Assembly: GCA_028287505.1 (NCBI GenBank)
Contig: JAQBPN010000013.1
Span: 1-34,673 of the forward strand
Direction: 5' to 3'
DNA: 34,673 bases
Origin: Fibrobacterota bacterium
GTDB taxonomy: Bacteria > Fibrobacterota > Fibrobacteria > UBA11236
Part shown: positions 2,928 to 34,673 of the stretch, in pieces
Numbering within the stretch: the first letter of the stretch is position 1
Layout of the letters: each line of letters opens with the position of its first letter
Translations under genes and position numbers: made by a program
The notes under the pieces: model-generated
What the model was told of the DNA's origin: nothing
The model's input: the letters and a program-made list of their open reading frames with translations, nothing else
Databases searched by the model: none

Positions 2928-3374
2928 TCAGCGCGGGTGCGCTTCGTCGATGACCTTGATCTTGAAGACCACGGCGGTGTCCGGGGTTTTCACGCGCACC
3001 TCCCGGATACCCACTTCCTCCCCTTGGGCCAGGGAATCCTTGGACAGCGGCAGGACCTTGAAATGGAAGGACTTCACCCGCCCCTTGGAACTGACCGCGC
3101 CCTCTTCCATGGCCAAGGTCGGGGGTATCGTGACGGTTACGCTGTCCAGCCTGCGGCCGTACATGAAGAATTGGCGGTTTTCGCCCAGTACCGTGGCCTC
3201 GGGCACCAGGCGCCATTCCGGCTGGACCGGAGGGAGGGGAGCGGGCGCCAACAGGGAACAGGCCGCCAGGTTCACGGCCAGGCAGACCGCGGCCAGGATG
3301 CCGAGGCTTCCCCGGATGTTGCGGATGTTACGGATGCGGCCGGGTACAGGAAGCGGTGCGGGAAGGAAAGGCAT
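2928..3374 (-). CDS. Small predicted lipoprotein, unknown function
   Basis: A 148-residue protein with a basic N-region, a hydrophobic stretch (GSLGILAAVCLAVNLAAC) and a lipobox LAAC at about residues 36-39, so it is probably lipidated and membrane anchored. The remaining roughly 110 residues are a beta-rich domain (TVTIPPTLAMEEGAVSS, GIREVRVKTPDTAVVFKIKVIDE) that I cannot assign. The N-region contains RNIRNIR, encoded by a short near-perfect tandem nucleotide repeat (about 3314-3340). The gene starts 18 bases after the lutC stop and looks co-transcribed with lutABC, but nothing in its sequence ties it to lactate metabolism. No strong ribosome binding site is seen, so the start could be further in. 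Confidence 0.7.
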   Translation of the reverse strand: MPFLPAPLPVPGRIRNIRNIRGSLGILAAVCLAVNLAACSLLAPAPLPPVQPEWRLVPEATVLGENRQFFMYGRRLDSVTVTIPPTLAMEEGAVSSKGRVKSFHFKVLPLSKDSLAQGEEVGIREVRVKTPDTAVVFKIKVIDEAHPR

Positions 3375-5571: not shown

Positions 5572-5774
5572 TCGTCGGGCGTCGGGCGTCGGGCGTCGGG
5601 CGTAAAGAATGGGATCGCTTTGGTAACGGAGTACGCGCTTATTTGGGACGGCTGGGAAGCGGCGGCGGAACGCCCTGCCGTTGGCCCGAGCCGCCCAAAG
5701 CCAGCGGCAAGAGACCACCCATTCTTTACTGTCTTGGTCTTAACGCCCGACGCCCGACGCCCGACGCCCGACGA
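5572..5774. repeat. Palindromic element with CGTCGGG heptad arms in the lutA-lutB gap
   Basis: The gap between lutA and lutB (5494-5803) holds a 203-bp inverted-repeat element. The left arm (5572-5603) is four tandem copies of the heptad GTCGGGC; the right arm (5743-5774) is its exact reverse complement. Next inward, AAAGAATGGG (5604-5613) is mirrored by CCCATTCTTT (5718-5727), with about 15 extra bases on the right side. Further in, GGGACGGCT (5645-5653) pairs with AGCCGCCC (5689-5696). The whole can form one long interrupted hairpin. No open frame in it looks coding and no clear target-site duplication is seen. It resembles a MITE or intergenic palindromic repeat. Confidence 0.75.
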
Positions 5775-9981: not shown

Positions 9982-12081
9982 TCAGCGAGGGAAGGATTGG
10001 ATGTTGCCCGCATCCACGTTCAGGATGTTCCCGGTGGACTTGAAGGAGGCATCCCCGGCGAAGAAATAGACGGCCTCGGCGATGTCTTCCGGGAACACGT
10101 TGCGCTTGAGCATGCTGCGTTGGCGGTAATGCTCTTCCAGCTGATCCTCGCTGATCTTGTAGGCATCCGCGCGCTCCTTGCGCCAGTTGCCCTGCCAGAT
10201 TTTGGAACCGCGGATCACGGCGTCCGGATTGACCACGTTGACGCGGATGCCTTTGGGCGCGCCTTCCAGGGCCAGACAGCGGGCGAGGTGGACTTCGGCG
10301 GCCTTGGCGGTGCAATAGGCGGCCGCGCCGGGAGAAGCGGCCAGGGCATTCTTGCTGGCGATGAAGATGATGGAGGCGTCCAGCTCCTGGGAAAGCATGA
10401 TTTTGTACCCCTCGCGCGAGACCAGGAAGTAACCGGTGGCGAGGATGTCCATGTTCTTGCGCCAGATTTCCAGGGTGGTGTCCTCGTAGGCCGCGGTGGA
10501 GGCGATGCCGGCGTTGGAGACCAGAATGTCCACGCCGCCGAATTCGCGGGCGCAGACCTTGAGGCTCTCGATCACGGATCCTTCATCGGTCACGTTGCAG
10601 GTGGCGATGCGTACGCTGTCCTTGCCGTACTTGGCGGCCAGTTCCGCTTGCGTCTCTTTCAAGGCTTCCGCGTCGATGTCCGTCAGGCAGACCACCGCGC
10701 CATCGTCGAGCAGACGGCGCGCCGTGGCCTTGCCGATGCCGCCGGCGCCGCCGGTGATGAGGGCGATGCGCGACGCCAGGGCTTTGGGCTTGGGCATGCG
10801 CCTCAGCTTGGCTTCTTCCAGGGCCCAGTATTCGATGTCGAACGCTTCCTGTTCGGGCAGGCCCACATATTGGTCGATGGCGCCCGCGCCGCGGATCACG
10901 TTGATGGCATTCACGTAGAACTCGCCGGCGATGCGGGCCGTGGCCTTGTCGTTGGCGAAGGAAAACATGCCCACGCCGGGCACCAGGATGATGACGGGAT
11001 AGGGATCGCGCATGGCCGGGGAACCGGTCCGCTTGCAACGGTCGTAATAGGCCGCGTATTCCTTGCGGTAGCCTTCCAGCAAGCCGTCCAGATTGGACAG
11101 GACCTTGTCGGCGGGATCCTTGGCGGGGTCTATCTCGGCGAACAGCGGGAAGATCTTCGTGCGCAGGAAATGGTCCGGGCAGGAGGTGCCCATGGCCGCC
11201 AATTCCTTGGCTTCCCGGGAACACACGAAGGTCAGCACTTCCTCGGAATCATTGAAGTGGCCGACCTTGCGGTTCTCCTTGCTCAGCTTGCCGCGCAAGG
11301 ACGGCATCAGGCGGGACGCGAATGCCGCACGCTCCTCTTTGGAGAGCGCCGCCACCTTGGGTCCGCCGAAGGCCTGGCCCTTGTCGAGCGAATCGATATG
11401 GTCCTGGGCCTTCTGGATGACGCGCAGGGTGTTCTGGTAGCATTCCTTGGAAGTCTTGCCCCAGGTGAAGAACCCGTGGCCGCCCAGCATGATCCCCTTG
11501 AGGTGCGGCTTGGCCTTGCACATGGCTTCCAGCTTGAGCCCCAGATCGTAACCGGGACGTTGCCATGGGATCCAGCCGAGCTCGCCTTCGAACACCTTTT
11601 GCGTGATGGCCTCGCCGTTCTTGGATGCGGCGATGGCGATGACGGAATCCGGATGCACGTGATCGACGTGCTTGAAAGGGATATAGGCGTGCAAGGGCGT
11701 GTCGATGCTGGCCGCGCGCGTATTGAGGTTGAAGGTGCAATGGGGCAGATAGCCGACCATCTCGTCTTCATGGGCGAGTCCCCGGTACAGTCCCTTGAGG
11801 GCGTTCAGCTTCTCCATGTACAAGGTGGAAAAGCCGTCCAGCTTCATGCTGCCGATGTCCCCGCCGGACCCCTTGACCCACAGGACTTCCACGTCCTTTC
11901 CGGTAAGGGGATCCTTCATGGCCGCCTTGGCGGAGGTGTTGCCGCCGCCGTAGTTGGTGACGCGGAGATCCGATCCGAGCAGATTGGAGCGGTACAAGAG
12001 CAACTGCTCTTCGGAAAAACCCTCACAATCCCGGTCGACCCAGATGTCCGGAATGGTCGTTCTGCGCGTTACATCTTTCAT
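9982..12081 (-). CDS. rhaEW: Bifunctional rhamnulose-1-phosphate aldolase / L-lactaldehyde dehydrogenase-type SDR
   Basis: A fusion of about 699 residues. The N-terminal part (to about 420) is a class II aldolase: GGGNTSAK, WVKGSGGDIG, HVDHVHPDS with zinc-binding histidines, and LGGHGFFTWG. The C-terminal part is a short-chain dehydrogenase: ALITGGAGGIGKATAR (dinucleotide binding), LVSNAGIA, and the catalytic YCTAK preceded by IIFIASKNALAAS. In the known RhaEW/YuxG proteins the aldolase splits L-rhamnulose-1-phosphate into dihydroxyacetone phosphate and L-lactaldehyde, and the dehydrogenase half oxidises the lactaldehyde. The lactate produced could feed the nearby LutABC system (inference). 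I chose ATG 12081, with AAGG and GGAG just upstream; GTG 12111 is the alternative. It is first in the minus-strand rha transcript and divergent from the transporter operon. Confidence 0.92.
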   Translation of the reverse strand: MKDVTRRTTIPDIWVDRDCEGFSEEQLLLYRSNLLGSDLRVTNYGGGNTSAKAAMKDPLTGKDVEVLWVKGSGGDIGSMKLDGFSTLYMEKLNALKGLYRGLAHEDEMVGYLPHCTFNLNTRAASIDTPLHAYIPFKHVDHVHPDSVIAIAASKNGEAITQKVFEGELGWIPWQRPGYDLGLKLEAMCKAKPHLKGIMLGGHGFFTWGKTSKECYQNTLRVIQKAQDHIDSLDKGQAFGGPKVAALSKEERAAFASRLMPSLRGKLSKENRKVGHFNDSEEVLTFVCSREAKELAAMGTSCPDHFLRTKIFPLFAEIDPAKDPADKVLSNLDGLLEGYRKEYAAYYDRCKRTGSPAMRDPYPVIILVPGVGMFSFANDKATARIAGEFYVNAINVIRGAGAIDQYVGLPEQEAFDIEYWALEEAKLRRMPKPKALASRIALITGGAGGIGKATARRLLDDGAVVCLTDIDAEALKETQAELAAKYGKDSVRIATCNVTDEGSVIESLKVCAREFGGVDILVSNAGIASTAAYEDTTLEIWRKNMDILATGYFLVSREGYKIMLSQELDASIIFIASKNALAASPGAAAYCTAKAAEVHLARCLALEGAPKGIRVNVVNPDAVIRGSKIWQGNWRKERADAYKISEDQLEEHYRQRSMLKRNVFPEDIAEAVYFFAGDASFKSTGNILNVDAGNIQSFPR

Positions 12082-32489: not shown

Positions 32490-33032
32490 TCAGCCCCTGC
32501 GGGCCCAGCGGGTGTCGGCGGGATCGGGGGCGGGAGCTTTTTGGGGCGCGGGGGCGTCCGCGGGACGGGGCGGCATTTCCTTCTCCTCCGCTTCCATCAT
32601 GGCCTCCAGGATCTGGGCCTGGCTGCGGAGCAGGTTGCGGAAGCGGGCGAAGAACTGCATCTTCTGGTTCTCGAGCACGTAGATCTCCGAGCGCAGGCCC
32701 GCCACGTGCTCCCGGGAGCTCATCATCTCGTCCGCGGCCTTCTGGCGGGCGTCCGTAATGATGGCCTCGGCCTCCTGATTGGCCACTTTCCGCTTCTCTT
32801 CCAGGGTGTTCTGGATAGTGATTACTGCATCCTGCAGGGTTTTTTCGATGAGGCGATAGTGGTTGAGGCGCTCCTCGGCGATTTTCAGGCGCTCGGAAAG
32901 CTGGATGTTCTGGCGCGTCAACTCCTCGAAATCCTTGGCGATGGACTCGAGCAAAGCCCGGACCTCATCGGGGTCAAAGCCTTTGAACCGGGTGCCGAAC
33001 TCGTGTTTTTTGATGTCCAACGGCGTTATCAT
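32490..33032 (-). CDS. DivIVA-domain coiled-coil protein
   Basis: A 180-residue protein with the DivIVA start MITPLDIKKHEFGTRFKGFDPDEVRALLESI, which carries the conserved PxDIxxxxFxxxxxGFDxxEV pattern. It is followed by a long coiled coil (about residues 30-150, e.g. LTRQNIQLSERLKIAEERL) and a Pro/Ala-rich tail. DivIVA proteins bind curved membrane and recruit partners for cell division or polar growth. GGGGAG five bases before ATG 33032 fixes the start; the frame extends upstream only as low-complexity sequence. The stretch upstream contains structured repeat copy A in the same orientation. Confidence 0.88.
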   Translation of the reverse strand: MITPLDIKKHEFGTRFKGFDPDEVRALLESIAKDFEELTRQNIQLSERLKIAEERLNHYRLIEKTLQDAVITIQNTLEEKRKVANQEAEAIITDARQKAADEMMSSREHVAGLRSEIYVLENQKMQFFARFRNLLRSQAQILEAMMEAEEKEMPPRPADAPAPQKAPAPDPADTRWARRG

Positions 33033-33126: not shown

Positions 33127-33345
33127 GGAGGCGGCGTGGGAGCCCGGGGCCTCAAACGGGCTCCAGCGAAGGCGTCGGTGCGCTGGGTTTGCTACGCAGG
33201 TTGGCGGGCGATACGCAGGGGCTTATGCGCGGATTCGCGGAAGGGTGCCTCGTGACTTTGTCGCGTCAGCCGCGAATCCGTGCCCGCCGACCTGCTTCGC
33301 CTTCGCCTCCGCCCGATTCGGCCCCGGGCTCCCACGCCCGCCTCC
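33127..33345 (-). repeat. Structured repeat element, copy A
   Basis: Copy A, read on the minus strand, folds into one long interrupted hairpin. The outer stem pairs 33320-33345 with 33127-33151 (25 pairs, one bulge). Next come CGGGC/GCCCG (33311-33315 with 33157-33161), CCTTCGC/GCGAAGG (33300-33306 with 33166-33172), then 33282-33295 with 33196-33209 (13 of 14 pairs) and an inner stem GGATTCGCGG/CCGCGAATCC (33270-33279 with 33231-33240). A 29-base apical loop (33241-33269) contains GCGACAAAGTCACGAGGC. A small side hairpin CGCA/TGCG sits at 33214-33229. It ends 94 bases before the divIVA start. Loops match copies B and C; stems differ in sequence. Confidence 0.85.
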
Positions 33346-33455
33346 ACGGTCGCGCGCCGGGTTGAAGATTTAAAAGAACCTGCGAAACCTTTACCAGAGG
33401 GCACCGTGCTGCCATCACGGAGGGACGGGGGGCCGAGCTAGTCGGCGGCCAAGAA
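33346..33455. other. Spacer between repeat copies A and B
   Basis: About 110 bases separating two inverted copies of the repeat. It includes ATTTAAAAGA (33367-33376), which on the minus strand matches the TTTTAAA box preceding copies B and C. No gene or further repeat recognised. Confidence 0.4.
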
Positions 33456-33524
33456 ACTTGGGGCAAACAACTTCTTCTCTTTCTCTTCTCTTTTTAACCC
33501 CGCAGCCCCGCCGCGCGAAGAGAA

Positions 33525-33746
33525 GGGGTGGGTCCATGGGGCGGGGGGCCGAATCGGGCGGAGGGGGAAGGAGCAGCGGGGACATTCAGCGTGGGTTCGC
33601 GGCTGGCGCGACAAAGTCACGAGGCACCCTTCCGCGAACCCATGCGGAGACCCCGGAGCCGGGGATTGTCCCCCGCTGAGAGACCACGCAGCACAGCCTC
33701 CTTCCCCTGAAGCCCGTCTGAGGCCCCCGCCCCATGGACCCGCCCC
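33525..33746 (+). repeat. Structured repeat element, copy B
   Basis: Copy B has the same architecture as A on the plus strand. The outer stem is 33525-33550 with 33722-33746 (one wobble, one bulge). A conserved internal loop (GAAT opposite TCTGA) follows, then CGGGC/GCCCG and GGGGAAGG/CCTTCCCC. Next is 33574-33584 with 33667-33678, and the apical stem GGGTTCGCGG/CCGCGAACCC (33593-33602 with 33632-33641) around the 29-base loop 33603-33631. A side hairpin CCCCGG/CCGGGG lies at 33651-33664. The homologous tract shared with copy C begins earlier, near 33456, with a pyrimidine run and CCCCGCAGCCCCGCCGCGCG. It ends 100 bases before the flavin-protein start. Confidence 0.87.
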
Positions 33747-33846
33747 CTGCGACCCACCGTGCGTTTGCGCCGTACCTCGCGTTTTTGCTTATTCAAGTAA
33801 GGGGAGGAGATCCCTCCCGATTCCATCTTCTGCGGGGGCCTGCCTT

Positions 33847-34329
33847 ATGGATAACGATAACCGCGACGAGAAAGCCAACCTTTGGCCCGACCTGCTTGAG
33901 AAAATCCGCGACGTCAAATTCGCGATGCTTACCACCGAAAATGAGGATGGAACCCTGCACTCCAGGCCCATGGCCACCCTGCGAACCAAAGAGGAGGGCT
34001 TCCTCTGGTTCTTTACCGGACGATCCACCCTGAAGGCCCGGGAAATCGAACACCATTCCCGGGTCAATCTCGCCTATGTCTCAGGCGACAACGAAACCTT
34101 CGTTTCCGTGGCGGGAGTGGGCCGTTTGATGGAGGATACCGACAAAGCGGAACAGCTTTGGAATTCCGATATGGAAGCCTGGTTTCCCCAAGGCCTTGAG
34201 GATCCCGATCTGGCCCTTATTCAAGTGGAAGTGGGCTCCGTGGAATACTGGAGTGTCGCTTCCAAAAGAAGGACGAACCTGATCCGGTTCGCCAATTACG
34301 TAGACATTTTCTCCCGCCTTGTTCCCTAG
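33847..34329 (+). CDS. Pyridoxamine 5'-phosphate oxidase-like flavin-binding protein (general stress type)
   Basis: A 160-residue split-barrel protein resembling the general stress protein 26 group of the pyridoxamine 5'-phosphate oxidase superfamily. Motifs: IRDVKFAMLTTENEDGTLHSRPMAT near the N-terminus, LWFFTGRSTLKAREIEHHSRVNLAYVSG in the middle (beta-barrel with flavin contacts), FVSVAGVGRLMEDTDKAEQLW, then ALIQVEVGSVEYWS. Such proteins bind FMN or FAD; their physiological substrate is usually unknown. GGGGG precedes the ATG by nine bases. It lies just downstream of structured repeat copy B and upstream of copy C. Confidence 0.85.
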   Translation: MDNDNRDEKANLWPDLLEKIRDVKFAMLTTENEDGTLHSRPMATLRTKEEGFLWFFTGRSTLKAREIEHHSRVNLAYVSGDNETFVSVAGVGRLMEDTDKAEQLWNSDMEAWFPQGLEDPDLALIQVEVGSVEYWSVASKRRTNLIRFANYVDIFSRLVP

Positions 34330-34495
34330 CGCCCCGACGTCTCACCCCAAGGTCCCAGGCTCGCGCACCTCCACCCAACTCCGAAGGTCTTCCCAAACTC
34401 CCGGGACTCCCGCCCAACTCCGAGACTCACCCCCGAAGGTCCGCAGCCCCGACCAAAACCTTTTCAAACAGGACTCAAGACCGAATCAACTCTCC
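34330..34495 (+). other. C-rich, G-poor degenerate repeat tract after the flavin-protein gene
   Basis: The 166 bases after the stop codon are unusually rich in C. They hold degenerate direct repeats: CACCCAACTCCGAAGGTC, CGCCCAACTCCGAG, CACCCCCGAAGGTCC and a related CACCCCAAGGTCCC. Such unstructured C-rich, G-poor RNA is what Rho factor binds, so Rho-dependent termination is plausible. No gene is seen. Confidence 0.4.
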
Positions 34496-34673
34496 ACTTG
34501 GGCAAATGCTCCTCTTGTCTTTCTCCCGTCTTTTAAACCCCGCAGCCCCGCCGCGCGAACAGCCGGGGTGGGTCCATGCGCCCGGGGCCGAATCGGGCGG
34601 AGGGGGAAGGAGCAGCGGGGACATTCAGCATGGGTTCGCGGCTGGCGCGACAAAGTCACGAGGCACCCTTCCG
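34496..34673 (+). repeat. Structured repeat element, copy C (cut by the window end)
   Basis: Copy C aligns with copy B from ACTTGGG (34496) through the pyrimidine run and the CCCCGCAGCCCCGCCGCGCG tract. The element itself begins near 34565 (GGGGTGGGTCC). It continues through the conserved GAATCGGGCGGAGG strand, the second stem arm CAGCGGGGACA, the apical arm CATGGGTTCGCGG and the full 29-base loop, ending in CCG at 34673. Its outer arm differs from B (GGTCCATGCGCCCGGGGCC against a G-rich version in B). The pairing right half lies outside the window. Confidence 0.85.

What the first reader, a model, noticed from the sequence alone, without database searches (positions are those of the whole stretch)
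33127..34673. Three copies of a structure-conserved, sequence-variable element: candidate new RNA family or repeat class
Copies A, B and C share loop and junction sequences almost exactly, while the helices of the complete copies A and B differ and still pair. Examples: apical stem GGATTCGCGG/CCGCGAATCC in A versus GGGTTCGCGG/CCGCGAACCC in B; third stem segment GCGAAGG/CCTTCGC in A versus GGGAAGG/CCTTCCC in B; the outer stems and the second stem are almost unrelated yet pair over 25 and 11-14 positions. Compensatory change in several helices plus invariant loops is the hallmark of selection on RNA (or single-stranded DNA) structure. I do not recognise it among riboswitches, tmRNA, RNase P, 6S, retron or group II RNAs.
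Basis: seen in the sequence. Interest (0 to 1): 0.88.

Follow-up and report, generated by a model that had tools for sequence, protein, structure and literature searches.

The report
Dispersed covarying RNA hairpins after genes
The three copies belong to a previously unlisted family of about 230-base foldable elements, scattered mostly just after unrelated genes in two sister bacterial species, whose paired arms keep changing in step so that the fold survives while the sequence does not, which points to a new RNA element under selection for shape.

Summary
A and B are complete. C is cut by the contig end and completed by contig C26 (exact 127-nt overlap). Covariance models and a model-free arm scan found at least 20 copies in this genome and at least three in its sister species G002. 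None were found in four other congeners or in the rest of the 168 phylum genomes held (pre-filtered search). Rfam, plasmids, phages and IMG/VR gave no homologue. Each copy has a 19-32 bp outer stem whose sequence differs from copy to copy (own arms 99% paired, foreign arms 52%), an inner part of 168-177 nt (20 of 22 copies), and a conserved right internal loop CGCC(Y)GATNCG. At one orthologous locus, 84 pairs show 16 compensatory changes and none broken. Orthologous elements are 75-81% identical between species, while their 3' flanks are 40-58% identical. Fifteen of 20 copies in this genome lie in sense orientation right after a stop codon, mostly within 40 nt; none lies antisense there. There is no target-site duplication, shared terminal repeat or U-tract. 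Best reading: a lineage-specific, duplicating, structured RNA element carried in mRNA 3' ends, acting in cis through its fold. Family and structural selection are well supported; transcription and the mechanism are inferred.

The parts
33127..33345 (+). Copy A, complete element
   Evidence: the repeat finder, fold z -8.3; CM R1 128 bits
33127..33151 (+). A, left outer arm (25 nt)
   Evidence: pairs with 33320-33345, one bulged C
33320..33345 (+). A, right outer arm
33152..33319 (+). A, inner part, 168 nt (family range 168-177 in 20 of 22 copies)
33310..33319 (+). A, right internal loop and helix-2 strand CGCCCGATTC, conserved across the family as CGCC(Y)GATNC
33227..33283 (+). A, apical stem (arms 33227-33240 and 33270-33283) with the conserved 29-nt loop containing GTGACTTTGTCGCG; the D/E subfamily has GTGACTTAGTCGG
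33525..33746 (-). Copy B, complete element (arms 33722-33746 and 33525-33550)
33456..33524 (-). B, 3' flank homologous to that of C (TCGCGCGGCGGGGCTGCGGGGTT..., purine-rich); its first ~20-40 nt also shared with copies K and L
34565..34673 (-). Copy C, truncated by the contig end; completed by G000:C26:7438-7678
   Evidence: exact 127-nt contig overlap
34496..34564 (-). C, 3' flank homologous to that of B
32493..33032 (-). divIVA-type gene flanking A (A points away from its start)
   Evidence: Pfam DivIVA 5.8e-32; synteny conserved in five congeners
33847..34329 (+). Pyridoxamine-5'-phosphate-oxidase-like gene between B and C
   Evidence: Pfam PF16242 1.3e-42

Best explanation
This is a lineage-specific family of dispersed structured RNA elements. 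Each copy is a ~230-nt rod: an outer stem of about 20-30 bp whose sequence is private to the locus, a conserved internal-loop module (left TNNGACGGCT-like, right CGCC(Y)GATNCG), and an inner part of nearly fixed length with subfamily-specific apical loops. New copies arise by duplication into gene borders, mostly directly behind a stop codon and in sense orientation, so they should be transcribed as the 3' UTR of the upstream gene. Selection then keeps the fold while stem sequence drifts by compensatory change. Most likely the folded RNA acts in cis at the mRNA 3' end (3'-end protection, block of read-through, or a long double-stranded substrate for RNase III-type processing), with the conserved internal and apical loops as protein contacts. 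Shown: the family, the covariation, conservation at orthologous loci, the sense placement, the presence/absence difference between species. Inferred: transcription, the RNA-level cis function, the mode of spread.
For: Twenty non-orthologous copies pair 98.9% with their own arms and 52% with other copies' arms; inner length is 168-177 nt in 20 of 22. An independent descriptor scan gave 15 hits in 915 kb of this genome (12 family copies, 3 weak) against 0 on reversed sequence, 3 in 381 kb of G002, and 0 in 266 kb of other relatives. Orthologous copy E/G002:C23: 84 pairs, 16 compensatory, 0 broken, slid controls at most 46% paired. Orthologues are 81% (H) and 75% (E) identical against 54-58% and 40% in the 3' flank and 78-83% in neighbouring coding DNA. 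Orientation: 15 copies follow a stop codon in sense, 14 of them within about 40 nt, 0 antisense; gene neighbours are unrelated (yggS, mnmE, fabF, SOD, HtrA-like protease, YbjQ). Duplication: B/C 92% identical; the A-C locus is empty in five congeners and D is absent at the same site in G002.
Against: No transcript data. At least four copies (A, B, E, M) point away from a gene start instead of following a stop codon, so a 3'-UTR role cannot be universal unless those have their own promoters; none was detected by consensus at A-C. The excess of G.U pairs in the sense strand, expected for RNA, is fully explained by base composition. No U-tract follows the stems, so they are not ordinary terminators. 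Only two species carry it.
Confidence: 0.5

Rival explanations
1. A non-autonomous mobile DNA element (MITE-like) whose hairpin, as single-stranded DNA, is recognised by shape by a transposase or recombinase encoded elsewhere; fold conservation reflects mobility, not a host role.
For: Dispersed copies beside unrelated genes, subfamilies, recent near-identical copies (B/C), presence/absence differences between sister species; the ssDNA fold is also significant.
Against: Copies do not share terminal inverted repeats, show no target-site duplication (shared word 3.9 nt, cross-copy 3.8) and no TA at the ends. Copies fixed at orthologous sites are still conserved with compensatory change, which pure mobility does not require. 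Strict sense placement at stop codons is unusual for DNA transposition. The transposase was not searched for.
Confidence: 0.25
2. Arms stay complementary by a DNA-level copying process (quasipalindrome template switching or arm-to-arm gene conversion), so covariation does not reveal selection.
For: The three clustered compensated transversions between B and C in a short stretch of the outer stem look like one templated event. Perfect 27-32 bp arms are common.
Against: Compensatory changes also occur singly in inner helices 3, 4, 5 and 6 of the orthologous pair. Loops are the most conserved part between A and B, inner length is fixed, and elements are far more conserved than their 3' flanks; copying alone explains none of these.
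Confidence: 0.12
3. Each element is an independent small-RNA gene of a multi-copy trans-acting RNA family (with its own promoter in the divergent cases) that binds a common protein.
For: Fixed size, conserved loops with subfamily-specific apical motifs, four or more copies not behind a stop codon; AT-rich TATAGAATTTTACC upstream of E conserved in both species.
Against: Most copies start within 40 nt of a stop codon in sense, leaving little room for a promoter; TATAGAAT at E may be the divergent gene's own promoter.
Confidence: 0.13

Closest known systems
ERIC/IRU/RU-1, Correia/NEMIS and YPAL/RU-2 intergenic palindromic MITEs (reviewed in PMC2229807)
   Same: 100-170 bp, intergenic, dispersed, long highly base-paired transcripts; NEMIS RNA proposed as an RNase III substrate and ERIC orientation matters for mRNA stability (PMC2229807)
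   Different: Those have family-shared terminal inverted repeats and in most cases TSD and terminal TA; here arms are private to each locus and covary, no TSD, no TA, and copies are ~230 nt with a fixed inner length
Ype and Efa stem-loop repeat families (PMC1590033)
   Same: Large stem-loops preferentially at the 3' end of genes; preliminary unpublished evidence that they stabilise mRNA is mentioned
   Different: Defined there by sequence similarity; compensatory change is not mentioned (0 occurrences)
REP/BIME/REPIN elements with RAYT transposases
   Same: Palindromes at gene 3' ends acting as structure (own knowledge; PMC3733652, PMC3116915 listed)
   Different: REPs are 20-40 bp with a GTAG/CGTC tag (PMC3733652 abstract); these are ~230 nt with a rod fold
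Integron attC sites
   Same: Sequence-variable, structure-conserved palindrome directly after an ORF (own knowledge)
   Different: No cassette arrays or repeated core sites seen; flanking genes include housekeeping genes in conserved synteny
Intrinsic transcription terminators
   Same: GC-rich hairpin within tens of nt of the stop codon
   Different: ~10 times larger, conserved internal loops, no U-tract

Membership tests
Structured RNA family (covariation-supported) | Compensatory base changes across several helices with conserved loops | tested here: met
   16 two-sided and 0 broken of 84 pairs at an orthologous locus; own arms 98.9%, foreign arms 52%
Structured RNA family (covariation-supported) | Transcribed | not testable with these tools
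   No RNA-seq available; sense placement after stop codons is indirect
Known Rfam family | Match to a curated covariance model | tested here: not met
   Searches (gathering; E <= 1, 12 loci): none for the element
MITE (ERIC/NEMIS type) | Terminal inverted repeats shared between copies | tested here: not met
   foreign arms pair only 52%
MITE (ERIC/NEMIS type) | Target-site duplication and terminal TA | tested here: not met
   shared word 3.9 vs 3.8 nt in cross control; TA at 1 of 22 ends
MITE (ERIC/NEMIS type) | Dispersed multi-copy with insertion polymorphism | tested here: met
   A-C empty in five congeners, D absent in G002
MITE (ERIC/NEMIS type) | Autonomous partner with matching ends | not tested
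REP/REPIN | 20-40 bp palindrome with GTAG or CGTC tag | tested here: not met
   Element is ~230 nt with a 19-32 bp outer stem
Intrinsic terminator | U-tract directly after the stem | tested here: not met
   no T-run after the right arm in the copies listed
Integron attC | Cassette array context with integrase core sites | tested here: not met
   conserved chromosomal synteny, housekeeping neighbours

The most novel reading that the evidence does not exclude
A new class of mobile element defined by shape instead of sequence: each insertion carries or rewrites its own private, perfectly complementary arms and is placed, strand-specifically, at the ends of transcription units, implying an RNA- or hairpin-templated copying mechanism not known for bacterial palindromic repeats.
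Probability: 0.15. Interest if true: 0.85.

Novelty: new variant of a known kind. Interest (0 to 1): 0.62.

Why it matters
Bacterial palindromic repeats are normally recognised by shared sequence. A family held together almost only by shape would be missed by sequence-based repeat and RNA searches, and Rfam does not hold it. Orthologous pairs with clean compensatory evolution, plus sense placement at stop codons, make the old question of whether intergenic palindromic repeats are selected as mRNA 3'-end structures directly testable in one genome.

Tried and rejected
Loop pattern in own genome and 40 relatives: only the window copies and C26. The 18-nt loop in 84,980 genomes gave four hits with no flanking stems, about what chance gives. 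Plasmids and phages by blastn: none. IMG/VR two-motif patterns gave 31 hits, none with arms. Window 5572-5774, L127:5153 and L251:6969 scored with the models but are a different GTCGGGC tandem palindrome, rejected. G.U asymmetry as strand evidence: rejected, composition explains it. Terminator reading: no U-tracts. 'Fourth copy on C26' rejected: assembly overlap with C. Some members (X, O, P, Q, R) were missed or nearly missed by the models and found by the arm scan, so counts are minima.

Full report
OBSERVATION. A and B fold far better than shuffles as RNA (z -8.3 and -8.5), and B also as single-stranded DNA (z -6.2). B and C are 92% identical over 162 nt and differ by three two-sided changes in the outer stem. 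The window's end cuts copy C. Contig C26 ends in the same copy with an exact 127-nt overlap, so Lon - YggS - [C] - PNPOx-like - [B] - [A] - DivIVA - EndoV is one continuous locus. This synteny is kept in whole or part in five congeneric genomes, all without the elements.

A LARGER FAMILY. A covariance model from B and C recovers A with 128 bits and finds a divergent inverted pair, D and E, on contig C20 with loop GTGACTTAGTCGG and the same right internal loop. A second model from A-E finds further copies on C70, C35 (2), C112, C99, C34 and others, and at least three in the nearest congener G002. A model-free scan for inverted arms finds the same places and more. At least 20 copies are now located in this genome; about a third of it was read in full. 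No other genome among the 168 of its phylum held by the tool gave a hit (pre-filtered, so weak relatives may be missed). Rfam gives nothing.

ANATOMY. From the outside in: an outer stem of 19-32 bp; left internal loop TCARAC / TNNGA; helix 2 (CGGGC/GCCCG, CAGGC/GCCTG or CGGC/GCCG); right internal loop CGCC(Y)GATNCG; further helices; a small left hairpin; an apical stem with a subfamily-specific loop. The inner distance between arms is 168-177 nt in 20 of 22 copies (194 and 201 in two), although arm sequences are different between copies: own arms pair 98.9%, arms of different copies 52%. A descriptor of right loop plus complementary arm gives 15 hits in 915 kb of this genome, of which 12 are family copies and three are weak matches with unrelated loops, 3 in G002, none in 266 kb of other relatives, none on reversed sequence.

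EVIDENCE FOR SELECTION ON THE FOLD. Two copies are truly orthologous between the two species: E (before an aminotransferase gene) and H (after a YbjQ-like gene). In E, 84 pairs include 16 with changes on both sides and none broken; sliding the partner by 1-3 columns leaves at most 46% paired (the structure was derived from these two sequences, which favours it somewhat). In H the paired columns are 98% and the unpaired 64% identical. The elements are 75% and 81% identical, close to neighbouring coding DNA (82.5%, 78%), while the first 100-200 nt of the 3' flank are 40-58% identical.

CONTEXT. In this genome 15 copies follow a gene's stop codon in sense: C 4 nt, D 38, F 7, G 21, H overlapping the last codons, I 36, J 17, K 21, L 101, N about 10, X 13, O 8, P 7, Q 4, R 11; none is antisense at a stop codon (gene calls are by codon usage, several confirmed by Pfam). 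X/K and Q/R are inverted pairs because each convergent gene has its own element. A, B, E and M instead point away from a nearby gene start, and S is far from both neighbours. The neighbours are functionally unrelated, so the element is not a gene-specific regulator.

MECHANISM. Unrelated hosts, recent duplicates and empty orthologous sites show duplication and spread. Conservation after insertion and sense placement at mRNA 3' ends point to an RNA-level effect in cis. I commit to a folded 3'-UTR element that shapes mRNA 3'-end fate (confidence 0.5). It is not an ordinary terminator (no U-tract). RNA over DNA is not proven: the G.U excess is a composition effect and no transcript data exist. 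A shape-recognised mobile DNA hairpin is the main rival; arm-to-arm copying may contribute to the perfect arms.

KNOWN RELATIVES. It works like the intergenic palindromic repeats whose transcripts alter mRNA stability (ERIC, NEMIS; PMC2229807) or like the Ype and Efa families at gene 3' ends (PMC1590033), but it is not a member: no shared terminal repeats, target duplications or TA ends.

Noticed in passing
window 5572-5774; L127:5153-5339; L127:18015-18148; L251:6969-7098: A second, different palindromic repeat class: tandem CGTCGGGCG units facing their complement around a 60-150 nt hairpin; in L251 it lies 47 nt after a stop codon.
   Followed up: partly
L096 about 3003-3160, L110 about 10640-10710, L116 3' flank of copy J: A short direct repeat GGGTCGATGCAACCGCGRGGAGAATTCGCG in the intergenic region downstream of copies H and J.
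   Followed up: no
L104:2587-2755: Inverted repeat with ends TTAACAGGGTGTTGAAAAAGTCC, resembling IS or MITE termini, in G002.
   Followed up: no
L091:9995-10165 and L126:15124-15358: Two hairpins with related arms (CTCCGGT...CATTGA...ATGG), perhaps another dispersed repeat.
   Followed up: no
window 34547-34673 and contig C26 end: Exact 127-nt contig overlap: the assembly graph branches inside copy C, hinting at strain variation, a collapsed near-identical copy or a hairpin artefact.
   Followed up: partly
G000:C14:8383-8823: A second PNPOx-like gene, 62% identical to the one between B and C.
   Followed up: no
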